Below are positions 345-35,482 of a DNA stretch of 64,000 nt, piece after piece. The notes below the pieces were generated by a model. It searched no databases. It had not been told where the DNA came from and saw nothing but the letters and a program-made list of their open reading frames with translations. Within the stretch, counting starts at the first letter, position 1. Each line of letters starts with the position of its first letter. This DNA comes from a virus. The translations under genes and the position numbers were made by a program. The stretch is from positions 1-64,000 of the IMG/VR virus record IMGVR_UViG_3300020733_000014; one strand, given 5' to 3'.

Positions 345-1346
345 TCAACCATGACAACTCAGACACTCTTTTGAAACATTAACCCCAGTTTCAGATCTAA
401 TATAATACAACGATTTAATATAAGGATCTTTAAAGGCAGCTTTATGGACTTCTGAAATATATTCTTCATCTTCATCAGCAGAGAAGAAAAGATTTATAGA
501 TTGAGCTTGGTCAATATATTTTTGTCTTGTAGAAGCCAATCTAATTATACTATGCTGATTAATTTCAAAAGCAGTTTTAAATACTATTTTTTCTTCATCT
601 GTTAACCAATCTACATGCTGAACAGAACCATTATTAGAAATAATATCTTTAACAGTTTCTTCTGAATATACATTTATTTTTTTCATCAACGTTAATAATG
701 AAGGATTAACCCTATCCATTTTTCCTGCTGCTGTATTTTGAACATAAGCATTTTTATAGATAGGTTCAATACCTTGACTCACAGAACCACAGATTAACGC
801 AGAAGAAAGATTTGGTGCCACTGCAATTCTATGGGTATTTCTTACTCCATACCCTTTACACCATTCAGGTTCACCAAATTCTTTAGCCATCCATTCAGAA
901 GCACGTTTTGATTCTGCATCAAGATGTTTAAATATTTCTACATTTTTAAAATTAGCTTCTAAAGATTCAAAAGCAATTAAATGATCTTGAAGATAAGTAT
1001 GAAAACCAAGAAGACCTAATCCCAATGCTCTTGATTTTTCAGCAAATCTAACAACCCTTTCCATTCCCTTAGTGTTTTTACCAATTTCAATTAGATCTTG
1101 ATTGACGCAATCCAAGAATACTGTAGCATTAAACACAGCATCTGTATCTTTCCATTCATCATAAAGAGACGCATTCATAGATGAAAGAACACAAGAAAAT
1201 GTATGATCCTCATCAGAAAATAATGTGATTTCCGTGCAATTATGTACTAATATACCATTAGCAAAAAAATTGTGGTTATCTTCTACAGATATATCATATA
1301 CCGCTTCTTCATTTTCTAAATACTCAATTTTTAAACTCATTTTCAA
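345..1346 (-). CDS. nrdA: Split-intein C half fused to C-terminal half of ribonucleotide reductase NrdA
   Basis: The first ~36 residues are an intein C-terminal fragment ending FFANGILVHN (blocks F and G, penultimate His, terminal Asn). The next residue is Cys, and the remaining 297 residues are the C-terminal part of class I RNR large subunit. It begins CTEITLFSDEDHTFSC, which holds the active-site Cys (E. coli C439 position), its Glu partner and the C462-equivalent, and ends with the CxxC redox tail ECLSC. The ORF opens at a TTG (1346); an in-frame ATG at 1340 gives MSLKIE and is equally likely. The N-terminal partner is at 1516-2664. Both products should join by trans-splicing to a ~570-residue NrdA, which reduces NDPs for phage DNA synthesis together with NrdB. 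Confidence 0.93.
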   Translation of the reverse strand: MKMSLKIEYLENEEAVYDISVEDNHNFFANGILVHNCTEITLFSDEDHTFSCVLSSMNASLYDEWKDTDAVFNATVFLDCVNQDLIEIGKNTKGMERVVRFAEKSRALGLGLLGFHTYLQDHLIAFESLEANFKNVEIFKHLDAESKRASEWMAKEFGEPEWCKGYGVRNTHRIAVAPNLSSALICGSVSQGIEPIYKNAYVQNTAAGKMDRVNPSLLTLMKKINVYSEETVKDIISNNGSVQHVDWLTDEEKIVFKTAFEINQHSIIRLASTRQKYIDQAQSINLFFSADEDEEYISEVHKAAFKDPYIKSLYYIRSETGVNVSKECLSCHG

Positions 1347-20152: not shown

Positions 20153-20170
20153 AAGTTCACCTTCAATTAA

Positions 20171-21118: not shown

Positions 21119-21909
21119 TTAAAATAATCCTTAATGCCCTTTTCAATACCGCCAAAATTTAAATTTAATGAATCTAATACTTTAGACGAACCTGTATAAT
21201 TTATATGTGAATCTTTGAATTTAATTGTTTTTTGAATGTTATGGAATGTTAAAAATTTATTTACAAACTCACTTAACAGATATTTTTCTTTATATACCAA
21301 ATTCAAATCTTTTATTTTTTCGTTTTTCGGATTTAAATAATAATTTATAACTTCAAGAACATCATTCAACCAAAAATAATCAAACAACTTATCTTCTAGT
21401 ATTATATTATCTTCTAATAATACCTTATACAACAATCTAGATTTTTCTGAGCCATGAAAACAACCGAATAATCTAAGGTTATAAAAATTATCAACCTCAT
21501 AAATATTTCTTGAAATTATATTTTTACTAAAACCATAATGATCTTTTGGGAATTTTTTAAAGATTTCGTATTCTTTAACATAATCAATAGAAGAAGATCT
21601 ATCAAATTCAGCCCCAGAACCAAAATGAAGAACAAATTCAAATTCGTCTTTCATTTTATATATATTATTATATAATGTTAAGTTTTCATGGAAACATTCA
21701 AATTTAAATGTTGTTAATTGGGTATCAACATTAGACGCACAATTAACAACAACTTTTGGTTTTATTTTTTTTATACATTTATACAAAGAATCAAAATCCA
21801 AAAAATTGACATCGTTTCTAGACAATGAAACACAATTTAAATTCTTTGAAAGAAAATTACCAATAAATCCTGTAGATCCTAATATTAAAATATCAGAATC
21901 ATTTTCCAT
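21115..21909 (-). CDS. RmlD-like SDR sugar reductase/epimerase
   Basis: 264 residues with a Rossmann start ILILGSTGFIGNFLSKNL, NCASNVD and DHYGFSKNIISR (Y-x3-K) in the short RmlD-like style. It would reduce or epimerise a 4-keto sugar. The order here is SDR, RmlB-like, Gmd on one transcript. It overlaps the ThDP beta-like gene by 11 bases. The substrate is not assignable. Confidence 0.68.
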   Translation of the reverse strand: MENDSDILILGSTGFIGNFLSKNLNCVSLSRNDVNFLDFDSLYKCIKKIKPKVVVNCASNVDTQLTTFKFECFHENLTLYNNIYKMKDEFEFVLHFGSGAEFDRSSSIDYVKEYEIFKKFPKDHYGFSKNIISRNIYEVDNFYNLRLFGCFHGSEKSRLLYKVLLEDNIILEDKLFDYFWLNDVLEVINYYLNPKNEKIKDLNLVYKEKYLLSEFVNKFLTFHNIQKTIKFKDSHINYTGSSKVLDSLNLNFGGIEKGIKDYFK

Positions 21910-22474
21910 AATCAGAAAATTCTACTAATATTGTACTTTTATTATCAGTTCTATTATATGCATACTGATAACTTTTTAAAATATCATCAGGTGTGTGTAA
22001 TTCAATAATATCTACATGTTTAAACAAATTTCTAAATCCTTCAGAAAAATTACCTTTATGTTGGTCTTGTGGATCGATAGGTAATTCTGACCCAACAGCA
22101 ACTCTAATGATAACTTTTGGGTTATATTCACCAAGACTCATTGATGGCAATTTATCTAAATGATTGACGAGTTGATCGGCGGCACAAACAAGAAAATTCC
22201 ACCTTGGGAAAATAGAAATTGGAACAATACCATTTAATGCCATTCCAATACTAAATCCTATTTGTAAATTTTCGGTAACAGGAAATTCAAGTTTCAATTC
22301 GTCAGGAACAGAATGTAATGTTTGAAATAATCCAGTTCCTGGATATTTAACAGCCTGACCCAAAAATAAAGTATTTTCTTGCTCAGAAAGCCATTTCATG
22401 GCAGCGATCAATTCATTATTATATAATTGTTGTTCATTCATATTAAAATTCCACCCTAACCCCAGCACCAGCAT
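21899..22474 (-). CDS. ThDP-dependent enzyme, pyrimidine-binding (E1 beta-like) subunit
   Basis: The true start is probably the ATG at 22441 (MNEQQLYNNEL), giving 180 residues. LFLGQAVKYPGTGLF, FPVTENLQIGFSIGMAL (the Glu that activates thiamine diphosphate) and the IRVAVG strand match the transketolase-like pyrimidine-binding domain of E1 beta subunits. The protein is shorter than a standard E1 beta (about 325 aa) and lacks the C-terminal transketolase domain. It pairs with the gene directly upstream. Confidence 0.75.
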   Translation of the reverse strand: MLVLGLGWNFNMNEQQLYNNELIAAMKWLSEQENTLFLGQAVKYPGTGLFQTLHSVPDELKLEFPVTENLQIGFSIGMALNGIVPISIFPRWNFLVCAADQLVNHLDKLPSMSLGEYNPKVIIRVAVGSELPIDPQDQHKGNFSEGFRNLFKHVDIIELHTPDDILKSYQYAYNRTDNKSTILVEFSDYGK

Positions 22475-23069
22475 GAGGATATTTTTCGTTTTTATATTTG
22501 TAGTATATTAAATGTTCTGATTCAAATTTATCACCAGTAAACTCTTCAGGTAAATACCAAGGAGTTTGTCTACCCCAAATTTCTGAAGTTGGAGATGTAA
22601 CACTTAATCCATTATCTTCAACAATAAATGTTATTGGAAGATTAAATCCAACAGCATATTTATATGCTTCATGAAAAGCTCCAGTTTCAGCACTCATATC
22701 CCCTAACCAACACCAGACTCTAGATTTTTCTTCTTTAAGTTGGATTGCTTTTGCAATACCAGCTGCAATACTAGGAATTCCACCAACAATACTTGAACAT
22801 ACAATTTTATATTGTTCCAAGTTTATTACCATACTTTTACCAGCAAGGATTTTCTCTATCAACAATTCTTCAGGAACACCTTTTAATAAGCATTGATAGT
22901 GATTTCTCCATGTACAACAAACCCAGTCATTTTCAGTATCTATTTTTTCAAATACTGTTTGTATTTGCTTTTCATTTCCATGATATAAATGGATAGGAGC
23001 TCTAATTTGTTTATTATTAAACAAATCAGCAACTTTGTTTTCAAATTCAATAAGTTCTTGATCTTTCAT
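22443..23069 (-). CDS. ThDP-dependent enzyme, diphosphate-binding (E1 alpha-like) subunit
   Basis: 208 residues. The thiamine-diphosphate/Mg motif is GDMSAETGAFHEAYKYA through IVEDNG (G-D-x ... N). IVGGIPSIAAGIAKAIQ precedes it as in E1 alpha subunits. With the beta-like gene downstream it should form an alpha2-beta2 ThDP enzyme. In sugar clusters such enzymes can build branched-chain sugars by transferring an acyl unit from a 2-keto acid; its place two genes after an RfbH-like dehydratase makes that the preferred guess. Confidence 0.75.
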   Translation of the reverse strand: MKDQELIEFENKVADLFNNKQIRAPIHLYHGNEKQIQTVFEKIDTENDWVCCTWRNHYQCLLKGVPEELLIEKILAGKSMVINLEQYKIVCSSIVGGIPSIAAGIAKAIQLKEEKSRVWCWLGDMSAETGAFHEAYKYAVGFNLPITFIVEDNGLSVTSPTSEIWGRQTPWYLPEEFTGDKFESEHLIYYKYKNEKYPHAGAGVRVEF

Positions 23070-23070
23070 A

Positions 23071-23757
23071 TTAATATATTATTTCTTTAGAATATTGTTT
23101 AACCAATTGGGCACGTTTTTGCCAGCTAATTCCAGCAAGATGTAATAACCAATCACCCTTTTCCCAATTACCTCTATTACCTTTTGTATCAAATTTTATC
23201 TTTTCACTATCAGCCGAATTTTCATCATAACTATTCATAAAATTTTGTGGCATTATTTGAATCAGTTTATCAAAATTTGATAAAAAATCAATCATACATT
23301 CTTGTTCAAAATATGGTTTTTGTGAATATACCTCAAAATTATCAAGTATAAATTTTAACCACAATTTCGATTCTTCAGTATTTTTAATCAAAATAGAATC
23401 ACTATTAATAGGGAAATTAAAATCACCACTCATAATAATATTTGCGTTTGGATTTATGTTTAATGCTTCTTCAAGCTTTTCTTCAACTCTAACATTAAAA
23501 TTTGTAATTAGTGTATCACAACCAGTCCACCAAATCCAAGAACACTGAGGAACGCTAACTAACAAATCATAAAGAAAAATTATTTTTTCAAACCCTATTT
23601 GAACATTATAAAAACCATTCGATTTACTTATTGCAAGATAATTATGTTTTTTAGCATAATTTACCTTATTTAAATTCCAAGTAATATTTGCAACTTCAGA
23701 AAAATCATTTTGTTCATACCCATTTAATGGGGTATGAATCGATGCCAATAAAATCAT
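23071..23757 (-). CDS. GT34-like glycosyltransferase
   Basis: 228 residues. WIWWTGCDTLITN (acidic metal-binding motif in a GMA12/MNN10-type context) and GDWLLHLAGI near the C terminus match galactosyl/mannosyltransferase family GT34. It lies between the ThDP pair and the RfbH-like gene with gaps of 1-3 bases, so it is firmly in the same operon. Donor and acceptor are unknown. Confidence 0.65.
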   Translation of the reverse strand: MILLASIHTPLNGYEQNDFSEVANITWNLNKVNYAKKHNYLAISKSNGFYNVQIGFEKIIFLYDLLVSVPQCSWIWWTGCDTLITNFNVRVEEKLEEALNINPNANIIMSGDFNFPINSDSILIKNTEESKLWLKFILDNFEVYSQKPYFEQECMIDFLSNFDKLIQIMPQNFMNSYDENSADSEKIKFDTKGNRGNWEKGDWLLHLAGISWQKRAQLVKQYSKEIIY

Positions 23758-23760
23758 AAC

Positions 23761-25095
23761 CTATCCTATAAACTGTTTCATAAAATCATCTACTACTATT
23801 TTTATATAGGCAATTTGATCATCGCTAATTACTGGACTTGTTCCATGGAATAATGTATGTGTAGTAGTATATGTTGCATTTGGATAATTCACTTTTGCAG
23901 TATTTGTATCCATAATATGTGTATACGCAGGTTGTAACATAATATTTCCAGCAAAATATGGTCTAGTTTGAATTTTTTTATTTTCAAGATAATTAACAAA
24001 CTCAAATCGTGTAAATGGAGCACCTTTTCTAATAGTCAATGGAAAAGCAAACCAACTCACATCAGATTTATCTCTAGCTCTTGGAAGATGAAAGAATTCT
24101 TCATATTTTTCATAAATTTGAAATAACAGATTATAATTTTTCTTTCTTAATTGTCCAATAGTATCCAATTTCTCAATTTGATGAAGACCAATTGATGCTT
24201 GCATTTCAATAGGCTTTAAATTAAATCCAATTTCATCATAAACATATTTGTGATCAAAAGTTTCATTTTCCAATGCTGGAATCCAATTACTAAATCTATT
24301 TTTACATGTTCCACATTTTAGGGTATTTGCTTTGGGACCAACACAATAACAACCACGACCCCACTCTCTTAAACTTCTTAAAATAACTTCTTGTTCTTTA
24401 GTGTTACAAGAAACAAATCCACCTTCACCCATTGTAATATGATGTGCTGGATAAAAACTACAAGAAGCCATCTCACCAAAACTGCCTAATGGTTTTCCAT
24501 CATAACTAGAACCTAAAGCATCACAACAATCTTCCAAAAGAATCAAATTATATTTGTTAACTAAATCCATCAATTTGTCCATATCTGGCGGATTACCTAA
24601 AACATGAGCAAATGTTATTATTTTAATGTCATGTTCTTTTATCAAGTCTTCAGCTTTAGTTAAATCAAGATTTAAAGTATCTAATTCGATATCAAGAAAT
24701 ATAGGTTCAAATCCAACTTGAAGTGTCGGATTTAATGTTGTCGGGAAACCAGCAATAGGCATCAAGACTTTTGTTCCTTTTGGGAAATTATGACCGTTTT
24801 TGCTTGTTAGGCTATACATCATTAACAAATTTGAACTAGATCCACTATTTGTTAGAATCCCATGATTTTTACCAAAAAATTTAGGAAATTTATGTTCAAA
24901 TTTCAAACTATCATTTCCCATCACAAGCCAACCATTTAAAATAGTATTTACGGCAGCAACATATTCATTATGATCAAAAAATGGACCAGCATAATTTACA
25001 TAATCAATACCAGCTTCCCATTTTTTTGTCAACAAATTATTTTCAGCATAACTTTTTACTGATGCTAAAATTTCACTTAAATCATTATTATTCAT
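23761..25095 (-). CDS. RfbH/DdhC-like PMP- and iron-sulfur-dependent 3-dehydratase
   Basis: 444 residues with the DegT fold. SGSSSNLLMMYSL binds phosphate, LLEDCCDALGSSYDG supplies the Asp, and CSFYPAHHITMGEGGF has His instead of the Schiff-base Lys. After it comes GRGCYCVGPK and LKCGTCKNRF, a four-Cys cluster placed like the [2Fe-2S] ligands of CDP-6-deoxy-4-hexulose-3-dehydrase (E1, RfbH/DdhC/AscC). It would remove the C3 hydroxyl of a 4-keto-6-deoxy sugar with electrons from a reductase partner; no such reductase (RfbI/AscD) is visible in the window. Confidence 0.85.
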   Translation of the reverse strand: MNNNDLSEILASVKSYAENNLLTKKWEAGIDYVNYAGPFFDHNEYVAAVNTILNGWLVMGNDSLKFEHKFPKFFGKNHGILTNSGSSSNLLMMYSLTSKNGHNFPKGTKVLMPIAGFPTTLNPTLQVGFEPIFLDIELDTLNLDLTKAEDLIKEHDIKIITFAHVLGNPPDMDKLMDLVNKYNLILLEDCCDALGSSYDGKPLGSFGEMASCSFYPAHHITMGEGGFVSCNTKEQEVILRSLREWGRGCYCVGPKANTLKCGTCKNRFSNWIPALENETFDHKYVYDEIGFNLKPIEMQASIGLHQIEKLDTIGQLRKKNYNLLFQIYEKYEEFFHLPRARDKSDVSWFAFPLTIRKGAPFTRFEFVNYLENKKIQTRPYFAGNIMLQPAYTHIMDTNTAKVNYPNATYTTTHTLFHGTSPVISDDQIAYIKIVVDDFMKQFIG

Positions 25096-25098
25096 AAT

Positions 25099-26022
25099 TT
25101 ATACTTTCCAATATGCAGTTGAGGTTTCAAGAAATCCAATTTCGTTTCGTTTTTGTGGTTCATCTTCTTCAAGAGGATAAATCCAATGCTCATTAAATAA
25201 TTTTTCTGGTGATGGATAACAATAATTATAATAATCAGGATTCAACCATCTTCCACCTAAAATACCAAAAAATAACTGTAAAGCACCGCCAGTTTGTATA
25301 CCAACCTTCCCTCTTTCTCTAGCATGATTTGCATAAAACGGAGATTGTGTTGTAACGCTTGTTAATAATACATCATAATCATATTGATCAATTCTATCTT
25401 TCGTTATATTTACTAATTGCTCAAAATCACCACAATCTTTATATTGTCTATCATCAATAGCAGGATGAAATGGCGTACTGATTGCATCAACCAATTCAAA
25501 AGGAACTATTTCTTCTACTCTATCGCCCCATATTTTATTAATATTTTTCCATTGATGTAAAATCGTTTTTGCATGGGAAGAAATAATAAGAACCTTTTTC
25601 CCTTTGAGATATTTTGTCCAAGGATTTTCTAGTTTTCCAAACTTAGAATACCCCATTATATATCCAGCATCAAAAATATGAAAATCAAAAAATGTGGGTT
25701 TATCTGGGAATTGATCTAAAAATTTATTTTCATTTGCTTTAATTTTACCAGAAACATCAACAAACCCTAAAATATTACATTGTTTCATCATTTCTATAGT
25801 TTTAGGCATCACAACCTGAAATGAATAATTTAAATCAGTCGGATAAATTCCACTTTCAACTAACGTATAATTATTGTAAAATTCTTCGCTTGGAGATTGT
25901 TTTTCGTGTAAACAATCAAGAACATATCCAGCAGTATTATCAATACGCAAAACAGAAAATGGTTCTCCAGATTGTAATCGCTCACCAATCAAATCATTTA
26001 TTTCATAAAAATCTTTTTGCAT
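25099..26022 (-). CDS. Putative GT-D-fold glycosyltransferase
   Basis: 307 residues. FSVLRIDNTAGYVL lies where GT-D proteins have their R-x-G-D-x-E-like donor motif, and QTGGALQLFFGILGGRW near the C terminus is a signature seen in GT-D-type proteins from polysaccharide clusters. GKKVLIISSHAKTI marks a Rossmann-like strand. The assignment is by pattern only; it sits in an unbroken run of glycosyltransferase genes. Confidence 0.55.
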   Translation of the reverse strand: MQKDFYEINDLIGERLQSGEPFSVLRIDNTAGYVLDCLHEKQSPSEEFYNNYTLVESGIYPTDLNYSFQVVMPKTIEMMKQCNILGFVDVSGKIKANENKFLDQFPDKPTFFDFHIFDAGYIMGYSKFGKLENPWTKYLKGKKVLIISSHAKTILHQWKNINKIWGDRVEEIVPFELVDAISTPFHPAIDDRQYKDCGDFEQLVNITKDRIDQYDYDVLLTSVTTQSPFYANHARERGKVGIQTGGALQLFFGILGGRWLNPDYYNYCYPSPEKLFNEHWIYPLEEDEPQKRNEIGFLETSTAYWKV

Positions 26023-26023
26023 A

Positions 26024-26866
26024 TTATTTTAATTTATCCTTTAAAAAATTATATAATGGGTCTAATGTTGGTAAAGTATTAAATAATGGCTCAGAAGAAA
26101 TAGCCAAAAATAGATTTTTATCATTTTCAATATCTACAACTTTTTTATAAATTTGTTCTAATGAAAGACCTGTAATATCAAGATAACAATCTTTATTAAA
26201 ATCTATAGTAGCTGCATTAGATCCATAATATAAAGGAATACACCCAGAAATTTTAGCTTGTAATAATTTTTCTGTCACATATCCATCATATATAGAATTC
26301 TCAAAACAAATATTCCACCTATAGTTGTACAAAAGTTTAAGTTTATCATCTACAGGATTATTAAACACCCTACCAAATCCATGAACAGGTTTAAATTCGT
26401 TTAATTTTGCTGTAGTATCTATTCTATTTTGAACTGGATTACCAATTATTATAGAACAAAATTCTTTTCTATTCCAAATTTCTTTAGAGTCAATCCATTT
26501 AGTCAAAGCAATCAATGGAATTTCAGCATGTTGAAAATTTGGTTCGTCCCACCAATTTATATATAGATACCAATGAGGAAGTCTAAAATTTCTTCCTGAA
26601 TAATCATCAAAATCAAAACTTAACGAATAATCAGCAACAGAATAATTGGGTCTTTCATTTTCGCCAATATATAAAATTTTAATTGCTTTAGAATTTTTAT
26701 ATACTTGATGTTCACTACCAAAACATGAAAAGAAAATAACATCAGCATATTCAGGTGCTGTTATTTTTATTTCTCTGTCAGGAAATGCACCACGCAATAG
26801 TAAATTAAACCAATTTGAAGAAGGATCAAATCCTGGCCAAAAATCTAAATATGAAATTTTCATCAA
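26024..26866 (-). CDS. GT10-family fucosyltransferase (alpha-1,3/4 type)
   Basis: 280 residues. FENSIYDGYVTEKLLQAK followed by SGCIPLYYGS is the hallmark GDP-fucose-binding region of GT10 fucosyltransferases. The N-terminal domain is short, as in bacterial members. It uses GDP-L-fucose, for which Gmd and Fcl are encoded in the same island. Its ATGA start/stop overlap with the gene upstream indicates coupling. Confidence 0.88.
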   Translation of the reverse strand: MMKISYLDFWPGFDPSSNWFNLLLRGAFPDREIKITAPEYADVIFFSCFGSEHQVYKNSKAIKILYIGENERPNYSVADYSLSFDFDDYSGRNFRLPHWYLYINWWDEPNFQHAEIPLIALTKWIDSKEIWNRKEFCSIIIGNPVQNRIDTTAKLNEFKPVHGFGRVFNNPVDDKLKLLYNYRWNICFENSIYDGYVTEKLLQAKISGCIPLYYGSNAATIDFNKDCYLDITGLSLEQIYKKVVDIENDKNLFLAISSEPLFNTLPTLDPLYNFLKDKLK

Positions 26867-27630
26867 TAAATTCCTGTTGCAGTATTATAAATTATTTCAG
26901 CAGAATTAGAAACTTGTTGAATATTATATAATTTTCCCAATTCTCTTGGTTTTACCTTAATATTATAAATAGTTTCTTGTAATTTTAAATCACATTTTTG
27001 AAACATTTCTTGCATTTCTTTCTCTGCTTTATCTTTCATATATCCTGTTGAAGTAGGATGATTAACTTCGAAAGAATAATCTCTTATGACATATCGACCA
27101 TCAAGATGACTAAGAGCACAAATAATTAAATCCCAACCCCAACCTAAAATATTTTCTCTCATTAAATGATAATTAGCTTTCATTGCATTAATATAATCTT
27201 TATGAATAAACCAACAAGTATTATCAGTTGTTGCAACAAGTTTTAAATTTCCATCTAAATCTGAAACATCAGTTCTTTCTGAAATGTAAAATGTATCGTT
27301 AACATTTGGAGCAAATACACCCCAATTATAAGTATTATAACTTTCTCTTGCTGATTTTATAATTGGTTCCCACTCAGAATAAGAAGCATCAGCTTGAATA
27401 TGCCACAAAACATCATATTTTGAATCATCAAATGCATCTAGAGCAGTTCTAAACTGATCAGAAAAATAACATTCGTTCCCAATATTAATCCAACCCTCTT
27501 TTGTATTATCATCATCAGAATTTATTACAACTACATCTAATAACGGAGATAATTGTTCTTGCAATTTGACAGCATTTTCAAACTGACCTTTCCAAGAAAA
27601 TATATAACATAATATTTTTATTTCGCCCAT
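26863..27630 (-). CDS. Glycosyltransferase, GT-A-like
   Basis: 255 residues. Strands ILCYIFSWKGQFENAVKL and DVLWHIQADASYSEW (a likely acidic metal motif) suggest a GT-A fold; WGWDLIICALSH resembles the catalytic-side WGxED-like loop of GT2-type enzymes. No closer family is recognised. It overlaps both neighbours by a few bases. Confidence 0.6.
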   Translation of the reverse strand: MGEIKILCYIFSWKGQFENAVKLQEQLSPLLDVVVINSDDDNTKEGWINIGNECYFSDQFRTALDAFDDSKYDVLWHIQADASYSEWEPIIKSARESYNTYNWGVFAPNVNDTFYISERTDVSDLDGNLKLVATTDNTCWFIHKDYINAMKANYHLMRENILGWGWDLIICALSHLDGRYVIRDYSFEVNHPTSTGYMKDKAEKEMQEMFQKCDLKLQETIYNIKVKPRELGKLYNIQQVSNSAEIIYNTATGIY

Positions 27631-28337
27631 GGATATTTTCCTTTATATTGACTATCAATTACACTGTTTCCCTGTTCAAAAAAATCTTTTGATACAGAAC
27701 CCACATTTCCACCTAATCTATAATTTATTGTATATTTACCAGAACATTCATAATTAGGAAAATGTTCATTTAAAATAGAGAAAATAACACGATCTTCACC
27801 CCAACCACAATGCCAAAATCTTGATATTTCTACAGCTATATTTCTTGGAATACAATAACAATTAGTATCAACCATGTTAGTATTTGTATAAGCGTTCCAT
27901 TTCCCCAAACTTTCACAATTATCTTGAAGCAAATAATCGCCATCAGGAGAATATATATTTCTTAAACTATATGCCCATTGGCATCCAGTAGATTCTATTG
28001 TATTAATCATATATTCAATATGATTAGGCTCATACCAATTATCTTGATCAAGATAGAAAACATAATCTTTATTTACTAAATGGGAAAATGCAGCATATAC
28101 TCTTTGTCCATAAAATCCATTTGCGCCAACATTTTCTTGTAAATAAACAACCTGTTTGTTTAAATTTGGATGTTTATCTATAATATTATCAACTTTAGAT
28201 TTATATTCAGGACCATCAACAACAATTAATGTTGTTACATCTTTATGAGTTTGATTCTCTAAACTTTTTAATGTTTGATCTAAAACAACAGAACCAATTG
28301 TTGGAATTATTACAACAGCACTACTCATTTTATCCAT
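27618..28337 (-). CDS. GT2-family glycosyltransferase
   Basis: 239 residues. VVIIPTIGSVVLDQTLKSL and SLENQTHKDVTTLIVVDG form the nucleotide-binding half, FYLDQDNWYEP is the DxD-type metal motif and CGWGEDRVIFS is the W-G-E-D catalytic loop. It is the first gene of the glycan island in the direction of transcription, overlapping the small gene upstream. Confidence 0.8.
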   Translation of the reverse strand: MDKMSSAVVIIPTIGSVVLDQTLKSLENQTHKDVTTLIVVDGPEYKSKVDNIIDKHPNLNKQVVYLQENVGANGFYGQRVYAAFSHLVNKDYVFYLDQDNWYEPNHIEYMINTIESTGCQWAYSLRNIYSPDGDYLLQDNCESLGKWNAYTNTNMVDTNCYCIPRNIAVEISRFWHCGWGEDRVIFSILNEHFPNYECSGKYTINYRLGGNVGSVSKDFFEQGNSVIDSQYKGKYPWAK

Positions 28338-28660
28338 TCCATAATTCGTCTCACAACATCATCAGATGTATGACCATCCCAAACGACACCAAATTCCAAC
28401 TCAGCAATCGGAAGAATTTCCCAAAATTCGTCTACAGGAAGGTGATATGTAACATCACCTGTTGGTAATCTCATACCAGCAATAAACCAACCATCCCAAG
28501 ATGTACCATCGCTGTGTTTTTTACTCTTCCAAGAAGCTTGTGGGTGAGACTTTAACAATGCAGCAAATAGTGTACATCTATGTGCATATAATTCTGACAT
28601 TGTATGATAACCATCAGATATATCAATATCTTCACCAACAACTGTATATCGTTTTTCCAT
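28325..28660 (-). CDS. Conserved phage hypothetical protein, 111 aa
   Basis: Contains WDGWFIAGMRLPTGDVTYHL followed by a Trp-rich segment, a pattern I associate with a small protein found in many large phages. The ELYAHRCTLFAALLKS segment is a second conserved part. No catalytic motif. It lies between the gp41 helicase gene and the glycan island. Confidence 0.6.
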   Translation of the reverse strand: MEKRYTVVGEDIDISDGYHTMSELYAHRCTLFAALLKSHPQASWKSKKHSDGTSWDGWFIAGMRLPTGDVTYHLPVDEFWEILPIAELEFGVVWDGHTSDDVVRRIMEWIK

Positions 28661-28663
28661 ATT

Positions 28664-30076
28664 TTATACCTTGAATCCACTAAATGAGTTTTTATCTATT
28701 TTCTTTTTACTTCCAAAAGAAGCAGCATTATATTCAGGTTCAGGAGAACCAGTATCAACTAATCCGTCTTGAGCTGAATCTTCAACATCGTACAACCTCA
28801 TTTTTGCACGATCAATTCCAACAACAAAACGTTTATTTAAATTTAAATCTCTAAATCTATTTTTTAATTGTTTTACCATCAATTGATTCAATTCTTGAAG
28901 TTCTTCAGAGTTAATAATAGACACCATAAAGTCCGCAATATGAGCAATACCGAAACTTTCTGAGATATCGGTCATATCGGTATCACTAGAATTTGCTGCG
29001 CCTCTGGTGGTCTGTGTGGCGCTCACAATAGGAACATTAAACTCTTGAGCCAAACCCCTTAATTCCTCACCAATAGCTTTAATATATGTGTAGGAATTAA
29101 CTGCCCCCGACATCTTCATTCTTGAAGACGCTATGATATTTAAATAATCAACAAATATAACATCAGGGACAAAATTCTTTTTTAATCTTAACTCATTTAA
29201 AAGAGTTCTGAAATGTGTCACAGAAGCACAAGATGTTGGATATTCTTTTATAAACAATTTTCCAGAAGTTTTAGATTTTACGAAATTTATTTTTTTCTCA
29301 TATTGAGCTTTTGTCATATTCATTAAATCGTCCATATAGACATTTAATAAATTTGCATCAATTCTTTTTGCAATTTCTTCTTCTGCCATTTCAGCAGTTA
29401 TATAAAGAACGTTTTTACCAGATTGATAAAAACTTGTTGCAAAATCACACATCATCAAACTTTTTCCAGAATGTGGAGCAGCTAGAATTATTGATAATGT
29501 TTTCTTAGGTAAACCTCCATTTGTTATCTTATTAAACCAATTTAAACTAAATGGAATTTTTTCTTCAGTTCTATGATAGTATTCATATCTCGAATCACTA
29601 TCATCAACATATTCATGACCAACACTAGAATCAAAAGAAATAGCTAATGCATCAGATAGCAATTTTGGAATAGATCCTTTAGATAAATCAGGATGTTTAT
29701 TTTCTAAAATTGAAATTGATTCAACAACAGCATTATATACTGCTTTTTCTTGACAAAATGTTTCTGTTTTATCAATCAACCATTCCAATTCAACTGTTTC
29801 TGCTTTCGATTCATGAAACTCGTTTAATAATCCAATTGCATCACTATATTCTCCATCAGATAAAGATTTATTTTCTAATTGGATAATTAATGATTCATAA
29901 GTTGGCAAATTACCATATTCTCCAATGAAAGAAGTTATTTCATTAAATATTAATTTTTCACTTCTTTCACTAAAATAATCTTGTTTTATAAACGGTAAAA
30001 CTTTTCGAGAATAATCATCCCAATATTGCAGATTCTTTAGAATCAGTTTGTTCAAGTTCAATAGTATTCTCCGCAC
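28664..30076 (-). CDS. 41: Replicative DNA helicase (T4 gp41, DnaB type)
   Basis: 470 residues, close to T4 gp41. Walker A is LAAPHSGKSLMMCD, Walker B region VIFVDYLNIIAS, and the H4 region includes SATQTTRGAANSS. It unwinds ahead of the fork and activates gp61 primase. The ATG start lies 62 bases inside the end of the upstream gene; the resulting N terminus aligns with the T4 start, so the overlap is probably real. No intein is present, although gp41 is a known split-intein host elsewhere. Confidence 0.95.
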   Translation of the reverse strand: MRRILLNLNKLILKNLQYWDDYSRKVLPFIKQDYFSERSEKLIFNEITSFIGEYGNLPTYESLIIQLENKSLSDGEYSDAIGLLNEFHESKAETVELEWLIDKTETFCQEKAVYNAVVESISILENKHPDLSKGSIPKLLSDALAISFDSSVGHEYVDDSDSRYEYYHRTEEKIPFSLNWFNKITNGGLPKKTLSIILAAPHSGKSLMMCDFATSFYQSGKNVLYITAEMAEEEIAKRIDANLLNVYMDDLMNMTKAQYEKKINFVKSKTSGKLFIKEYPTSCASVTHFRTLLNELRLKKNFVPDVIFVDYLNIIASSRMKMSGAVNSYTYIKAIGEELRGLAQEFNVPIVSATQTTRGAANSSDTDMTDISESFGIAHIADFMVSIINSEELQELNQLMVKQLKNRFRDLNLNKRFVVGIDRAKMRLYDVEDSAQDGLVDTGSPEPEYNAASFGSKKKIDKNSFSGFKV

Positions 30077-30353
30077 TTTTTGCTAAAATTGACATTAAAA
30101 TATCACCAATTTTAGTTTTAAATTCAATTGTCTGAAACTCTTCTTCAGTGTAACCAGACGAATCAACAATATCATAATTAAAACTCAACATTGCCGGAAG
30201 ATCTTCATCTGTAACATCATCTTTTGCTTCTGATATTGAAACACGAGAATATGTATAAATTACATCTTCAAAATTACCACTAATAATCTTTATACCAGCA
30301 GCACCATTAGCCTCAATGAAAGTATAATCTATTTCCTCTTTATAGTCAAGCAT
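30015..30353 (-). CDS. Conserved hypothetical protein upstream of helicase, 112 aa
   Basis: An acidic protein (MLDYKEEIDYTFIEANGAA ... DSKESAILG) without recognised domain. Position between uvsX and 41 corresponds to T4 gene 40, but no membrane segment typical of gp40 is seen. Its last 62 bases overlap the helicase start in another frame. Confidence 0.6.
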   Translation of the reverse strand: MLDYKEEIDYTFIEANGAAGIKIISGNFEDVIYTYSRVSISEAKDDVTDEDLPAMLSFNYDIVDSSGYTEEEFQTIEFKTKIGDILMSILAKSAENTIELEQTDSKESAILG

Positions 30354-30362
30354 TATTTTCTC

Positions 30363-30578
30363 CTACCAAATATTAAACCAATATCCAATTCCATGAACCC
30401 ATGCAACAGGAAATGCAATAGCACCAGCAATCAAAAAACCCCAAGATGCAGTTTTAATACAAACAACAACATGAGTTATCCATGCTGATAATAATACAAC
30501 AATAAGACAAATTGCAAATATTGCTCCTGTCAATTCAGCACAATTTTTATAATTCTTCATCATCCCCAATTTCTGCAA
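30363..30578 (-). CDS. Small membrane protein
   Basis: Most likely starts at MMKNYKNCAELTG (ATG at 30560, inside the final codons of uvsX). Two hydrophobic segments, GAIFAICLIVVLLSAWITHV and SWGFLIAGAIAFPVAWVHGI, indicate a two-pass inner-membrane protein of about 65 residues. It could be a holin-like or superinfection protein; there is no evidence beyond topology. Confidence 0.6.
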   Translation of the reverse strand: MQKLGMMKNYKNCAELTGAIFAICLIVVLLSAWITHVVVCIKTASWGFLIAGAIAFPVAWVHGIGYWFNIW

Positions 30579-31101
30579 ATGTTTGTTCTATATCTTTATC
30601 TGAAGCTAAAATATTTCCATGAGATACTTGATAATTAGATTTAATCCAATCTTGAAAAGTTTTATCTAATAATATTTTATTCCAGAAGTCCTTTGTATCT
30701 GTATCTTTAAGGCGATATTTCTTTTCTTCAACCTCGCCTGTCGCAGTATTAACTCGCGAATACCAACCATTAGATGGTTTTACAACATGTCCTGATTCTA
30801 GAGCCATATCAATTAAACCTGACCAAGAACTTAAACCGCCTTCATATTTTACAGTAATTGGTATTTTTGATTTTTCACGAACATGTCTTGATTTTTCAAC
30901 ATTTATAATAAAATTATACCCAACAACATCAGTACCTTCTTTTTCTTGTTGTCTGCCCAAGATGTAAATATTATCAGCAGAAAGATAAACACCAGTATTA
31001 TGTGTGATAACACCATTTTCTAGTACATATTGATGATTATCAGCAACAGTTATATCAAATACGTTTCTTTTACCAACTTTTTCTATATTAACAATTTTCA
31101 T
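30547..31101 (-). CDS. uvsX: Split-intein C half fused to C-terminal part of UvsX recombinase
   Basis: Residues 1-35 are an intein C fragment (MKIVNIEKVGKRNVFDITVA ... NGVITHN, blocks F and G). The next residue is Thr, followed by 149 residues of UvsX: TGVYLSADNIYILGRQQ, NVEKSRHVREKSKIP and VKPSNGWYSRV match T4 UvsX. The start ATGA overlaps the stop of the homing endonuclease frame. Trans-splicing with the product of 31663-32571 restores the conserved SGG-TG junction and a ~359-residue recombinase. Confidence 0.93.
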   Translation of the reverse strand: MKIVNIEKVGKRNVFDITVADNHQYVLENGVITHNTGVYLSADNIYILGRQQEKEGTDVVGYNFIINVEKSRHVREKSKIPITVKYEGGLSSWSGLIDMALESGHVVKPSNGWYSRVNTATGEVEEKKYRLKDTDTKDFWNKILLDKTFQDWIKSNYQVSHGNILASDKDIEQTFAEIGDDEEL

Positions 31102-31588
31102 ATTTTTTTCTCTTTACAATTATCATTATGCCAGCGTTTAATATTACCGACCACACTTTCTTTCCCACAATATATGCAAATTTCACGTTTTTGAAATGAT
31201 GATGTTGTTGCCCAAACATCTTTATCCATAACAGTATCAAATATATTTTTTTCCACTTTTTGTATTTCACCAGTTAAAACATTTTTTACAGTTAATGTTC
31301 CTTTATGTGCTTTAGAACATGCCTGTCTATGTGCATTACTTTAGCAATATGTGCATCTTGTTCCATAGATAATGCATCATTATATACATCAAATTCGCCT
31401 AAAATAAAAACTTCATAATTACATTTTGATAATGCTTCTAAATACACATTAGAATCACAAGATCCTTCATATAATTTATTATTTTTATCAAATATTTTTC
31501 CTTCTTTAATATAACAATTGCTTTTTGACCCAATATATAAATTTGGTAACCTGTTTCTTTTAAATTTAAATAAATATACTATATGCAT
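31098..31588 (-). pseudogene. GIY-YIG homing endonuclease, frameshifted
   Basis: The first frame (31588 down to ~31340) has IVYLFKFKRN and LYIGSKSN, the GIY-YIG module, with a Glu in DALSMEQDAHIAK. That frame ends at 31292. A shift of one base at the TTT run 31340-31342 opens SNAHRQACSKAHKGTLTV and continues to a C-terminal zinc-finger-like CIYCGKE ... NIKRWHNDNC, ending at 31098. One extra A in an AAA run would restore a ~163-residue enzyme. An AGGA ribosome site precedes the ATG. It lies exactly between the two uvsX halves, like the free endonucleases of fractured split-intein genes. Confidence 0.82.
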
Positions 31589-31662
31589 TATGTTTCCTAT
31601 AAATAGTTAATTCGACACAGGCATTTATTACTCTGCTGATATCATTTATAAGATTTATAATT

Positions 31663-32571
31663 TCACAATGTTGTTATATCATCTCCAATACTAAGTTCCT
31701 TTGCCGATACAAATTCTGAATTTTTAAGAAATGGGTGTTCATCAGAGCAAATTACAGAGTAACCATCTTCAAATGTAATTTTATAACATTCTGGATTTCC
31801 ATCTAAAAGTGTCTCTGGGTTCCAACTATGTGTAACAATTTTAGGACCATCTTGAGTTTTAACCAAACATCCAGGTGTAATATCCTCAATAGATTTTGAC
31901 GATCCATCAAACATTTGAATTTTAGTGCCTGCTACAACACAACCCCCGCTAACGACTGGTTTACTGAACATTTCCTGAGTCATATAGATATGATTTACTG
32001 CTACCATAGGAATATCATATTTAACTAGATATGGTGTAATCATACGAAACATAGATTTCATAGATTTTGCACGAGTCATATCAGCAACAGATTTACCATC
32101 AATAGCATCATCAGTTTCTTTTTTACTAGCCATATTTCCTAAAGAATCAACAACAAATATTACTTTGTCGCCTCTAGTAATATTTTGAAGGTGATTAATA
32201 ATATCAAATTTAAACTCTTCCATATTCATAATTGGGGTATGGAGAATTCTATCTTTATCCATACCTAATGAATCAAAATATGCTTCGGGTGTACCAAATT
32301 CGCAATCATAAAATACTAATACAGATTCTGGATATTTATCCATATATGCTTTAGCTAAAATCAAACAAAAAAGGCTTTTAAAATGTTTACTAGGACCACA
32401 AAATAATGAAAGTCCTGGAGTTAATCCGCCATCCAATCTGCCTGATAATGCAACATTAAACGCAGGAATTGGAGTTGTTATCATATCCTTTTTAGTAAAA
32501 AATTTTGATACAGATAAAATAGATGATTCTTTTATCGTTGAATTTTTTTTAAGTTTTTCAAGTAAACTCAT
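31663..32571 (-). CDS. uvsX: N-terminal part of UvsX recombinase fused to split-intein N half
   Basis: Residues 1-210 are UvsX (RecA-like): Walker A GPSKHFKS (59-66), Walker B VIFVVDSLGN, ending MTQEMFSKPVVSGG at the RecA loop-L2 region. Residues 211-302 are an intein N fragment: CVVAGTKIQMFDGSSKSIED (block A) and VICSDEHPFLKN (block B, His in a SDEH form of TxxH), ending GDDITTL. The partner is at 30547-31101. UvsX drives strand exchange and recombination-dependent replication. Confidence 0.93.
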   Translation of the reverse strand: MSLLEKLKKNSTIKESSILSVSKFFTKKDMITTPIPAFNVALSGRLDGGLTPGLSLFCGPSKHFKSLFCLILAKAYMDKYPESVLVFYDCEFGTPEAYFDSLGMDKDRILHTPIMNMEEFKFDIINHLQNITRGDKVIFVVDSLGNMASKKETDDAIDGKSVADMTRAKSMKSMFRMITPYLVKYDIPMVAVNHIYMTQEMFSKPVVSGGCVVAGTKIQMFDGSSKSIEDITPGCLVKTQDGPKIVTHSWNPETLLDGNPECYKITFEDGYSVICSDEHPFLKNSEFVSAKELSIGDDITTL

Positions 32572-32585
32572 AATATTTCCTTTAA

Positions 32586-35132
32586 TTAAGAAAAAAAGTC
32601 TTCAATAGAATTGGTTTTTTCAGTTGTCCAATCTAATATTTGAAGGATAGATTTTATTGGTTCTAAAAATGTTTTTTCAAATTGTTTATCATAATCGATA
32701 TAATTTTCAAGTTTAAATTCTTTTGGAAGTTCAGAGGGAAATCCAATAACAATATCTTTAATTGGGTTTGGCGATTTTAAATATGTATATTTAATTCTAT
32801 CACCTTCACCAACAATAGGATAAGTATTATCCAACTTTAATTCCCTTAATTTTTTATTGTAAATAATTGCACCTTTTGTATGCAAAGGACACCCAGAATT
32901 ATACACCGTAGTGGAATTAGAATATTTTTCAATACCATTAACTCCTCTTGGAGATGCAATATCTTCAACAGGAAGAGATTTAAATTCTAATCTAAAATCC
33001 TCAATAAAATTTTGTAAATCATCTTCTTTGTTATCAAGAATTAAAGATAAACACGTCTTTAATTTCTCCCTTACAACACCTGGAGTTGAAGATTTTACAA
33101 CTTCTAAACCCATAACTTTTAATTTTGGAGAAGCATACCTTACCCCTTCATTATCAAGAACATTCAAAAAATAACGTTTTTTAGCAACCCAAATGCCATT
33201 ACTAGAAATACCCTCTTGTTTAAAAGAAATCATATTTCTATAAGAATTTGTATATGTTTGAAGGTCTAAACAATTATCATTAATAATAGGTGTTATTTTT
33301 TCTTTAGAAATCTTATCGATAAGATTGACAAGTTTTTCATCAGACAAATCCTTATAAAACTTATTTACCATAGGTTCCAAAGAAACATAACAAGAATCTG
33401 TATCAGAATAAAAAGACCAATCGTAATCATCAATTTTAAATAATTTACTAAGATCTCTATTCAATCCTTCACCGACCGTTTTAATTATATATTGTCCAGT
33501 CAAAGTAATAGCTCTTGCATTTTCTAATTCAAAATACCTACAGTAAGCATTTCCAATCGCCCCATAGAGACTATTAAGACCAATTTTAAACGCCATTTGT
33601 TCATTATTAAATTTAGATATTTCATTAACAAGACGTTTGTATTCTTTTTGTTCATCAATATCAGAATCAAATTTAATTTTCTTTAATTTTTCCAACTGTT
33701 TTTCTGCTTCAATCATACTATTTTTAGCAGATCTTCTTTTTGCCATGTAAATATCAATAAGTTCTGGAAGCAACCCTTTCTTATCTCTTTTATACATAGC
33801 TCCATTAGCAGCAGTAGCATATTCTTCTGATATCTCACATTTCTTACCCATTAACCCAGATACAGAAATTGATGTATCAACACCCATATAAGTTTCTGGA
33901 GAAATATTCCATGTCTGCATAATACTAGGATAAAGTGAAGTTGCATCAAAACTAACAACCCAATTGTATAATCCAGGAACTGGTTCTTTTACAAATGCGC
34001 CTTCAAATTGTTCTGATTTAGAACCAGATGCTTTTTTAGGTATTACAATGTTCTGATGTTTTAAATGATTATAAATGATTGAATCCCACATTCTAATTTG
34101 TGAGAATACATCATTATAATTTATTTTTGCCAAATATGACATTGTTAAACAAAGTTCAATTAACTTTAATTTCTCTTCAAGTTCAATAACTCGAATCGTA
34201 TCAATGATGTTATAATCAATGAACTTATCAAATCCTTTAGTGTAAAATTCTTTAAATGTAGCAAATTCACTATGATCTAATTTACCTTTACCCAATTCAA
34301 CTTGACAAATATAATCTAAAGAATACATTTCTCTTTTAACATATGTAAATTTGAGATATAGTTGCATAAAATCCAAACAACTAACTCCAGCAATATCATA
34401 AACAATATCATCTTTACCAAACTTACCTTTTATTTTTCTAGAAGAAACCATTTTCCATGGACTTAATCGTTTAGCATGATCATCTCCCATAACATTCGAT
34501 ATTCTATTAATCAAATATGGTATATCAAAACCATCAATATTCCAACCAGAAACGATATCAATACCAATACGATTCCAATGATCAAGAAATTGATTTAATA
34601 ACGAATACTCATCTTGGCATAAAATAATTTCAGCATTATCATCATTTGTCCCATTGTAATCTCTTGATGTGAATGTTGTGACTTTTTTTGTAGACAATTC
34701 AGTCATAGAAATTAAAAGAATTTCTTCTGGTGCTGTTAATTTATGAGACACAGCATTTACATTTTCAGAAGCAGTTTCAATATCTAAGATATGAATTGAA
34801 ATTTTATTTATATCCCAATCTACATTAGATTGGAACTTATCTGAAATGTATTGTACATCAAATCCAATATCACCATAAATATCGAAATTATCAACTTCTT
34901 CATATCGTTTTATGAAATCTCTTGTTTCTTTGATACATCCAGGTTCAATTTCATCTACATACTTTCCATCCAAAGTTTTAAAATTCGATTGTTTATTAGA
35001 AGGAACATAAACCTTTGGGCTATATTCATATTTAAATCTGATCTGTTGGCCCGAGTCATCAACACCCCTATAACAAATATTATTTCCAATAACTCTTACA
35101 TTTGTGTAGAAGGAAGAACCTTCACTTTCCAT
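32586..35132 (-). CDS. 43: DNA polymerase (T4 gp43, family B)
   Basis: 848 residues, uninterrupted. Exonuclease motifs: HILDIETASEN (Exo I), GWNIDGFDIPY (Exo II) and DYNIIDTIR (Exo III). Polymerase motifs: DATSLYPSIMQ (A), KIGLNSLYGAIGNAYCRYFE (B) and FYSDTDSCYV (C). It is the replicative polymerase with proofreading. The C terminus ends EDFFS, plausibly the clamp-binding tail. It lies 14 bases upstream of the UvsX N half. Confidence 0.97.
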   Translation of the reverse strand: MESEGSSFYTNVRVIGNNICYRGVDDSGQQIRFKYEYSPKVYVPSNKQSNFKTLDGKYVDEIEPGCIKETRDFIKRYEEVDNFDIYGDIGFDVQYISDKFQSNVDWDINKISIHILDIETASENVNAVSHKLTAPEEILLISMTELSTKKVTTFTSRDYNGTNDDNAEIILCQDEYSLLNQFLDHWNRIGIDIVSGWNIDGFDIPYLINRISNVMGDDHAKRLSPWKMVSSRKIKGKFGKDDIVYDIAGVSCLDFMQLYLKFTYVKREMYSLDYICQVELGKGKLDHSEFATFKEFYTKGFDKFIDYNIIDTIRVIELEEKLKLIELCLTMSYLAKINYNDVFSQIRMWDSIIYNHLKHQNIVIPKKASGSKSEQFEGAFVKEPVPGLYNWVVSFDATSLYPSIMQTWNISPETYMGVDTSISVSGLMGKKCEISEEYATAANGAMYKRDKKGLLPELIDIYMAKRRSAKNSMIEAEKQLEKLKKIKFDSDIDEQKEYKRLVNEISKFNNEQMAFKIGLNSLYGAIGNAYCRYFELENARAITLTGQYIIKTVGEGLNRDLSKLFKIDDYDWSFYSDTDSCYVSLEPMVNKFYKDLSDEKLVNLIDKISKEKITPIINDNCLDLQTYTNSYRNMISFKQEGISSNGIWVAKKRYFLNVLDNEGVRYASPKLKVMGLEVVKSSTPGVVREKLKTCLSLILDNKEDDLQNFIEDFRLEFKSLPVEDIASPRGVNGIEKYSNSTTVYNSGCPLHTKGAIIYNKKLRELKLDNTYPIVGEGDRIKYTYLKSPNPIKDIVIGFPSELPKEFKLENYIDYDKQFEKTFLEPIKSILQILDWTTEKTNSIEDFFS

Positions 35133-35170
35133 ATATCAACTCCTATCAATTATCATATTTAGAATTATTT

Positions 35171-35482
35171 TTAAATAATAATTTTTGGAGCAGGTGCCGA
35201 TATAATTCCGAAAATTGAATTATATTGTTCTAAGAATTGTTCATCAATATCAATAAAAAATGAAATTAAATTTGTATTAAATGTAATTTTACCTTCTGTA
35301 TTTTGTTGAGCATATTGTGGGAATGGTGCAAATGCATAGGATTGCTCTTCTGGATTACTTCTTTTAGGCACAATAACTAATTGTATGGCATTTTTATAAA
35401 CATCACCTGTTTTGTTTGTTTCCACAAATTCCGCAATAACATCTTCACCACTAATTGTTCTAAACATTCTAATATCTGTCAT
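35171..35482 (-). CDS. Conserved hypothetical protein, paralogue of 46762-47145
   Basis: 103 residues starting MTDIRMFRTISGEDVIAEFV. The R-x(2-4)-(S/T)GED-(L/V)I segment is shared with the product at 46762-47145 (IRMKTGEDLIGF). Small beta-rich proteins with this start are common in aquatic T4-like phages; the function is unknown to me. A sigma-70-type promoter at 35512-35540 lies 30 bases upstream. Confidence 0.65.
   Translation of the reverse strand: MTDIRMFRTISGEDVIAEFVETNKTGDVYKNAIQLVIVPKRSNPEEQSYAFAPFPQYAQQNTEGKITFNTNLISFFIDIDEQFLEQYNSIFGIISAPAPKIII

What the first reader, a model, noticed from the sequence alone, without database searches (positions are those of the whole stretch)
30547..32571. 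UvsX recombinase also split by a trans-splicing intein
The N part ends VVSGG followed by an intein N fragment (CVVAGTKIQM, block B SDEH), and the C part starts with an intein C fragment (GVITHN) followed by Thr, then YLSADNIYILG of UvsX. The joined sequence reads SGG-TGVY, as in T4 (SGG-TGPMY). A second fractured core gene in one genome, with a different +1 residue (Thr) and clearly different intein sequence from that of NrdA, means two independent split inteins operate side by side and must not cross-react.
Basis: partly seen in the sequence, partly recalled or inferred. Interest (0 to 1): 0.88.

Follow-up and report, generated by a model that had tools for sequence, protein, structure and literature searches.

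The report
Split intein in phage UvsX recombinase
This virus makes its main DNA-recombination enzyme as two proteins that a self-removing protein splicer is expected to join, and close relatives show the splicer moving between viruses, losing its DNA-cutting gene and, apparently twice, turning back into a one-piece splicer.

Summary
The only uvsX in the 67.7-kb virus record is in two pieces: UvsX 1-210 plus a 92-aa intein N fragment, and a 35-aa intein C fragment plus Thr+1 and the rest of UvsX. The window has every splicing residue, and a natural one-piece relative is predicted to fold as an intein (nearest solved structure gp41-1). Trans-splicing is strongly inferred, not shown. A copy with an intact ORF (L003) shares 96.6% of the aligned insert bases while uvsX beside it shares about 76%, so the unit moved between phages recently. 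Of 64 distinct split inserts at this site, 41 keep a nuclease-sized ORF and 23 do not. In two separate intein clades the halves form one in-frame intein; in one, the former ribosome-binding site and start codon are still readable as EEIM. The arrangement is the known 'fractured gene' kind and 19 cultured phages carry it, so the window is a new member. What is new is the strain-level decay series and the evidence that fracture is reversible. Non-cross-reaction with the NrdA intein is untested; the two have opposite charge polarity.

The parts
31942..32571 (-). UvsX N-extein, residues 1-210, ending PVVSGG
   Evidence: T4 UvsX (3io5) is matched at E 4.6e-109 by the intein-free relative L011
31663..31941 (-). 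Intein N fragment (92 aa plus stop): Cys1, block B S66-D-E-H69
   Evidence: A1 alignment of 22 sequences, window included: Cys1, S66 and H69 invariant; TIGR01445 21 bits, below its 24.5 cut-off
30997..31101 (-). Intein C fragment (35 aa, own ATG): block F Asp16, H34-N35, followed by Thr+1
   Evidence: A2 alignment of 22 sequences, window included: D16, H34, N35 and T36 invariant; TIGR01443 26.4 bits, cut-off 15.6
30547..30996 (-). UvsX C-extein, 149 aa from Thr+1
   Evidence: phrog_18112 and T4_UVSX_C
31292..31588 (-). Remnant of a homing-endonuclease gene (GIY-YIG-like N part), ORF of 98 aa whose last part is out of frame
   Evidence: phrog_7504 homing endonuclease E 7.2e-11; about residues 1-82 match the intact 282-aa ORF of L003
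31098..31342 (-). Remnant of the nuclease C-terminal region (zinc-finger-like CIYCGK...RWHNDNC) in another frame; a 358-bp deletion relative to L003 lies at about 31342/31343
   Evidence: alignment with L003, 913 of 945 aligned bases identical; same 945-bp insert length in contigs of L001, L002 and L177
1516..2664 (-). NrdA N-extein plus NrdA intein N fragment (109 aa, CLTGDTRI...), second split intein of the same genome
   Evidence: TIGR01445 31.6 bits, cut-off 24.5
345..1346 (-). NrdA intein C fragment (HN|C) plus NrdA C-extein
   Evidence: TIGR01443 43.1 bits, cut-off 15.6
32586..35132 (-). Neighbour: B-family DNA polymerase (gp43-like), upstream of uvsX
   Evidence: named by eye from the translation; not scanned. 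Aeromonas phage Aeh1 has the order 43 - uvsX - 40 - 41
28664..30076 (-). Neighbour: gp41-like replicative helicase
   Evidence: named by eye; not scanned. Order as in Aeh1; T4 has uvsX - 40 - 41

Best explanation
A UvsX trans-splicing split intein whose homing-endonuclease gene has decayed. Shown from sequence: the two ORFs, all splicing residues present, a broken nuclease gene between them, recent horizontal transfer of the whole insert, and low dN/dS of both intein pieces. Inferred: the two precursors are translated separately; the acidic IntN and the basic start of IntC associate and fold into a HINT domain; Cys1 attacks the Gly-Cys bond, the acyl group passes to Thr+1, Asn35 cyclises, and UvsX is released joined as SGG-TGVY, within the region that corresponds to the ssDNA-binding L2 loop of RecA (position recalled). 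The insert first arrived by homing: an intact nuclease like that of L003 cuts an intein-free uvsX and recombinational repair copies the unit in. After arrival the nuclease is no longer needed and decays (358-bp deletion in the window lineage, almost complete loss in L179), while splicing is kept because UvsX is needed.
For: Single uvsX in the record, split, between polymerase and helicase genes. Splicing residues: C1, S66, H69, D16, H34, N35, T36 invariant in 22 aligned sequences; over all 72 distinct alleles at this site Cys1 72, block B S/T-x-x-H 71, terminal Asn 72, His-Asn 69, Thr+1 71. One-piece relative L239 folds as an intein: pLDDT 94.3, pTM 0.87; Foldseek E 3.5e-9 to Prp8 and 5.3e-9 to gp41-1; Z 19.4, rmsd 1.6 over 124 residues to gp41-1. 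It lies in a continuous 490-aa ORF, where the 140-aa insert must leave if UvsX is to work as in intein-free relatives. IntN dN/dS 0 to 0.27 and IntC 0 to 0.11 where defined, in 14 chosen pairs. Mobility: window and L003 share 913 of 945 aligned insert bases but 76% of uvsX N DNA; synonymous distance 0.035 in IntN and 0 in IntC against 2.2 and 2.7 in the exteins. Intein presence needs at least 21 changes on a 121-row UvsX tree, 12 of them forced by well supported branches (quick method). Same insert in independent contigs.
Against: No splicing assay. The window's IntN alone is below the curated cut-offs of PF14890 and TIGR01445. Some relatives depart from the consensus: L207 lacks the block B His at its place, L202, L241 and L248 have Ser-Asn instead of His-Asn, L189 has Ser+1, so not every copy need be active. 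GIY-YIG identity of the nuclease is only moderately supported: NUMOD3 in 11 of 11 and SegE_GIY-YIG in 4 of 11 relatives (best E 0.00038); the predicted structure is poor (pLDDT 68.6) and matched nothing at E 0.001. Nuclease cutting of intein-free uvsX is inferred from transfer, not shown.
Confidence: 0.9

Rival explanations
1. UvsX works as two non-covalently assembled subunits and the intein pieces are inert, as for the Aeh1 NrdA gene split by a homing endonuclease insertion (described in PMC2988022).
For: Such genes-in-pieces enzymes exist (PMC2988022, passages); no splicing has been measured here; a few relatives lack a consensus splicing residue.
Against: Inert tails would not keep Cys1 and the terminal Asn in 72 of 72 distinct alleles nor low dN/dS. 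In the one-piece relatives L239, L244 and L205 the intein lies inside a single 490-, 497- or 472-aa ORF.
Confidence: 0.05
2. The interruption is removed from RNA (group I intron) or bypassed in translation, not by protein splicing.
For: Group I introns with GIY-YIG nucleases occur in T4 (I-TevI, I-TevII; PMC2988022, passages).
Against: No Rfam family reaches its gathering score in 28600-35200; both reading frames run into intein blocks with conserved protein residues right up to the extein borders, and relatives have in-frame one-piece versions.
Confidence: 0.02
3. uvsX is a dead gene in this virus: insertion and nuclease decay are steps of gene loss, and another recombinase does the work.
For: The record may be a fragment; the nuclease is clearly broken.
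Against: Both exteins and both intein pieces are open and intact in the window, identical in L001 and with 2 base differences in L002 over 2022 bp, and lie between polymerase and helicase genes.
Confidence: 0.03

Closest known systems
Fractured genes with split inteins and a free-standing endonuclease between the halves (Dassa et al. 2009, doi 10.1093/nar/gkp095; paper not held; contents recalled, except that passages of PMC3653736, cite it for 7 nrdA and 2 nrdJ intein cases)
   Same: A phage DNA-metabolism gene broken by a split intein with a nuclease gene in the gap.
   Different: Here the host gene is UvsX; the nucleases found are GIY-YIG-like or HNH-like rather than the Vsr-like family named in that paper's abstract (recalled); in the window the nuclease is broken. 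I could not check whether UvsX is among its enzyme types.
gp41-1 and NrdJ-1 split inteins (6qaz/6riz, 8ubs)
   Same: Fold of the one-piece relative L239 (Z 19.4 and 17.4).
   Different: Only 23-25% and 17% identity over the aligned part; different host gene.
Split UvsX of cultured phages, e.g. Escherichia HY03, Proteus PM2, Shewanella Thanatos-1, Vibrio vB_VmeM-32
   Same: Same site, homologous IntN and IntC, nuclease or hypothetical gene between.
   Different: In the nine such records opened the halves are deposited as two genes under names such as recombination protein, RecA-like protein, recombinase, DNA repair protein or hypothetical; only vB_VmeM-32 notes a HintC domain. The longest ORF between their halves is longer than the window's remnant.
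T4 SegA, free-standing GIY-YIG nuclease beside uvsX
   Same: Cuts uvsX and lies next to it (PMC2988022, passages).
   Different: Outside the gene, no intein; similarity to the L003 nuclease is weak (BLASTP E 0.005; hhalign 89.7% over 63 columns).

Membership tests
Split intein (HINT, class 1) | Nucleophile at intein position 1, block B T/S-x-x-H, block F Asp, C-terminal His-Asn, +1 Cys/Ser/Thr | tested here: met
   All present in the window; invariant in the 22 rows of A1 and A2; a few exceptions among 72 distinct alleles
Split intein (HINT, class 1) | HINT fold | tested here: met
   Tested on the one-piece relative L239, not on the window pair:
Split intein (HINT, class 1) | Two separately encoded precursors that together carry all blocks | tested here: met
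   ORFs 31663-32571 and 30547-31101
Split intein (HINT, class 1) | Trans-splicing activity | not testable with these tools
   Needs expression
Fractured gene (Dassa 2009) | Endonuclease gene between the intein halves | tested here: met
   As a broken remnant in the window; ORF of 180 codons or more in 41 of 64 distinct split inserts
Fractured gene (Dassa 2009) | Vsr-like endonuclease (in half of their loci, recalled) | tested here: inconclusive
   Not listed by Pfam at E 0.01 for 10 ORFs scanned, three of which had no match at all; the other ORFs were not scanned for it, save those of A7
UvsX recombinase | RecA-like core plus T4 UvsX C-terminal domain | tested here: met
   phrog_97, T4_UVSX_C over its cut-off; PF00154 RecA just under its cut-off, 24.2 of 27 bits
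GIY-YIG homing endonuclease | GIY-YIG domain | tested here: inconclusive
   Y5, Y18-I19-G20 nearly invariant and E76, N93 invariant in A7; SegE_GIY-YIG in 4 of 11; TIGR01453 in 7 of 11, L003 at 17 of 56 bits; fold search empty
Homing mobile element | Insert more alike than its flanks in different hosts, including at synonymous sites | tested here: met
   Window against L003; 36 locus pairs with the first 240 nt of the insert over 90% and the extein under 85% identical, near-copies included
Homing mobile element | Endonuclease cuts the intein-free allele | not testable with these tools
   Needs assay

The most novel reading that the evidence does not exclude
Gene fracture by split inteins is reversible. 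In the UvsX family, deletion of the nuclease gene has at least twice (L239/L240/L244 and L205) fused a split intein back into a one-piece, in-frame mini-intein; in the first case the junction VEY-EEIM-KIK is the translated ribosome-binding region and start codon of the former second gene, next to sister alleles that are still split with an intact nuclease ORF (L245, L246) or split with it deleted (L250, L251). Split and one-piece inteins are then successive states of one homing cycle, and some natural mini-inteins would be former split inteins.
Probability: 0.82. Interest if true: 0.72.

Novelty: new member of a known kind. Interest (0 to 1): 0.56.

Why it matters
The element sits in UvsX; T4 intron homing depends on host RecA or phage UvsX (PMC2988022, passages), so the spread of this element may depend on its having first spliced: a natural link between protein splicing and homing that can be tested. 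The near-identical allele series (intact nuclease, broken, gone, re-fused) suggests that the homing cycle described for inteins with nested nucleases (PMC8966425, passages) also runs in split inteins, at strain level. The family also gives 61 distinct natural IntN/IntC pairs of graded similarity, useful for learning what makes split inteins orthogonal.

Tried and rejected
Assembly error as the cause of the broken nuclease: rejected, since contigs from three other metagenome accessions (L001, L002, L177) have the same 945-bp insert, and L179, of the same lineage, has a larger deletion. A second uvsX: none in the record; PF00154 passed no match at E 0.001 there, UvsX being too distant. RNA intron: no Rfam match. 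Promoters or terminators in the region: no more than in shuffles (44 against a mean of 47.1; 2 against 1.6).

Origin of the nuclease from T4 SegA: only weak similarity, so not claimed. Structure of the nuclease: poor model, no match. Of the 25 listed phage records with a relative of the L003 nuclease, 22 are records that carry the split UvsX intein; 127 records match in all and the other 102 were not listed.

Residue check: a last pass over 74 distinct alleles found the departures told above (L207, L202, L241, L248; L189 has Ser+1); for the two second-site alleles the scripted start was one residue late, so they are left out of the 72.

Literature: searches 'split intein'+'uvsX'+'phage' (0 papers) and 'intein'+'uvsX' (9 papers; passages of five were seen and no shown passage describes a UvsX intein; the other four were seen in the listing only), and the listings showed no paper on a UvsX intein or on a split intein re-fusing in nature; the library lacks most subscription papers and Dassa 2009. 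Only listings and passages were seen, no whole paper. One-piece inteins as chimeric assemblies: the 420-bp block with its junction occurs in three contigs with different flanks (L239, L240, L244), so the junction is unlikely to be an artefact; but L244 and L245 share 3441 bp upstream at 99.97% and then diverge (first 300 nt of the C-extein 68%), so one of those two could be a chimera.

Full report
What is there. The window lies in a 67,668-base virus record. On the minus strand, between genes that look by eye like a B-family DNA polymerase and a gp41 helicase (same order as Aeromonas phage Aeh1), uvsX is in two ORFs. The first (31663-32571) holds UvsX 1-210 and a 92-residue intein N fragment; the second (30547-31101) holds a 35-residue intein C fragment and UvsX from Thr+1. 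Family searches agree: phrog_97/phrog_8337 and phrog_18112, T4_UVSX_C, PF14890 over its cut-off when both pieces are read together though not for either ORF alone, TIGR01443 over its cut-off for IntC, TIGR01445 under it for IntN (21 against 24.5 bits). There is no other uvsX in the record.

Splicing residues. In 22 aligned sequences, window included, Cys1, Ser66, His69, Asp16 of IntC, His34, Asn35 and Thr+1 do not vary. Over all 72 distinct alleles at this site Cys1 and the terminal Asn are in 72, block B S/T-x-x-H in 71 (not L207), His-Asn in 69 (Ser-Asn in L202, L241, L248) and Thr+1 in 71 (Ser in L189). The window pair itself was not folded together. The natural one-piece relative L239 was folded (35-row alignment) with pLDDT 94.3 and pTM 0.87; its best solved matches are inteins (Foldseek E 3.5e-9 Prp8, 5.3e-9 gp41-1; Z 19.4 gp41-1). 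In 14 chosen pairs dN/dS is 0-0.27 for IntN and 0-0.11 for IntC where it can be computed. Trans-splicing is therefore the best reading; it is not shown.

The gap. Between the halves lie two ORFs in different frames, of 98 and 52 codons. The related contig L003 has one intact 282-aa ORF there that matches homing-endonuclease families phrog_7504 and phrog_314 and the NUMOD3 motif. The window lacks 358 bp of it and is out of frame after the deletion. The same insert is in contigs of three other metagenome accessions, so it is real. L179, which is 99.9% identical to the window lineage (L176) over 3608 bp and 99.5% over 1111 bp, has lost nearly the whole nuclease and is still split.

Mobility. Outside the deletion, 913 of 945 insert bases are identical between window and L003, while uvsX N DNA is 76% identical. 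Synonymous distances are 0.035 (IntN) and 0 (IntC) against 2.2 and 2.7 for the exteins, so selection on protein cannot explain the difference. On a UvsX tree of 121 rows (58 intein-free) the presence of the intein needs at least 21 changes, 12 forced by well supported branches; the nearest rows of the window other than its own strain are intein-free L011, then L003, then intein-free L018 (quick method, several long branches). The rows were reduced from 231 by removing near-duplicates, and the loci are the best 80 hits of each capped scan, so proportions are not prevalence.

Census. 105 fetched loci have IntN, IntC and the C-extein, 74 of them distinct, two at the second site. Among 64 distinct split inserts at the SGG|T site, 41 keep an ORF of 180 codons or more and 23 do not. 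Four distinct alleles are one-piece (L205/L206, L239/L081, L240/L082, L244). Different kinds of nuclease gene occupy the same place: GIY-YIG-like (L003, HY03; annotated so in Thanatos-1 and TG1) and an HNH-like kind (L245, which shares phrog_655 with the second-site ORF of L017, an HNH match). L225 and L183 carry larger, different ones. In 29 of 41 inserts with such an ORF it overlaps the start of the IntC ORF, in 11 by exactly 4 bases, which suggests translational coupling.

Re-fusion. L245 and L246 are split with an intact nuclease ORF; L250 and L251 are split with it deleted at different end points; L239, L240 and L244 are one-piece, in frame, with the junction GTAGAATAC-GAGGAAATTATG (shown for L239 and L244), that is the end of IntN joined to the ribosome-binding region and start codon of the former IntC gene. 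IntN DNA is 97-100% identical among L081 (the L239 contig), L240, L244, L245, L246, L250 and L251, while uvsX N DNA is 75-80% identical in 17 of their 21 pairs and 97-100% in the other four. L239 and L251 are close strains (97.8-99.0% over about 4.5 kb), one fused and one split. On the intein tree the one-piece alleles fall in two separate, well supported places among split ones, so split to one-piece is the simpler direction; the tree is unrooted and cannot prove it. The reverse (a nuclease invading a one-piece intein exactly at a latent start site) would need homologous nucleases to have entered the same point in many clades. In L205 the junction keeps an internal Met at the place of the IntC start but no clear ribosome-binding site.

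The other intein and cross-reaction. NrdA has its own split intein (345-2664) with Cys+1. The IntN sequences have no BLASTP alignment. In the UvsX pair the second half of IntN has charge -7 and the first 18 residues of IntC +2; this polarity holds across the family (IntN second half negative in 61 of 61 distinct pairs, IntC start positive in 60 of 61). In NrdA the signs are reversed, +1 and -3. If capture is electrostatic, as proposed for known split inteins (recalled), mixed pairs would repel. This is a prediction.

What is known. Split inteins with an endonuclease gene in the gap are the 'fractured genes' of Dassa et al. 2009 (not held; recalled; cited by PMC3653736 for 7 nrdA and 2 nrdJ intein cases, passages). 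19 cultured phages (25 records with RefSeq copies, of 35 records matching the one-piece intein) carry the UvsX version. I found no paper in the held library that names a UvsX intein or a natural re-fusion (searches listed under Tried and rejected), but could not read Dassa 2009. The window is therefore a new member of a known kind; the decay and re-fusion series is what I would follow.

Noticed in passing
L017:4592-5800; L034 and L100; L102: A second split-intein site in UvsX, 13 residues upstream (between YM and TQEM), with a divergent intein and, in L017, an HNH-like nuclease ORF.
   Followed up: partly
L239:4001-4420, L244:3136-3555, L205:3987-4376: One-piece UvsX mini-inteins nested among split ones; in L239 and L244 the former ribosome-binding region and start codon are translated as EEIM.
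   Followed up: yes
window 1347-1515: The gap between the two NrdA ORFs is only 169 bp, too short for a nuclease gene; the NrdA element may be a further decayed fractured gene.
   Followed up: no
window 13616-28337: A long run of genes that look, by eye, like nucleotide-sugar epimerases, dehydratases, aminotransferases and glycosyltransferases lies just beyond the helicase gene.
   Followed up: no
L225:1170-2660 and L183:3133-4428: Much larger ORFs (497 and 432 aa) at the same place between the UvsX intein halves; neither matches Pfam at E 0.01; the first matches homing-endonuclease phrog_3339 strongly, the second only weakly.
   Followed up: partly
L164 (Vibrio phage vB_VmeM-32): Five HINT matches at E up to 0.01 in one phage: UvsX, two in a DNA polymerase region annotated in pieces, and two more.
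   Followed up: no
L202, L241, L248, L207, L189: UvsX inteins that depart from the splicing consensus: Ser-Asn instead of His-Asn, a shifted or lost block B His, or Ser+1.
   Followed up: partly
L244 and L245: 99.97% identical over 3441 bp up to the intein, then 68% in the first 300 nt of the C-extein: recombination at the intein or a chimeric contig.
   Followed up: partly
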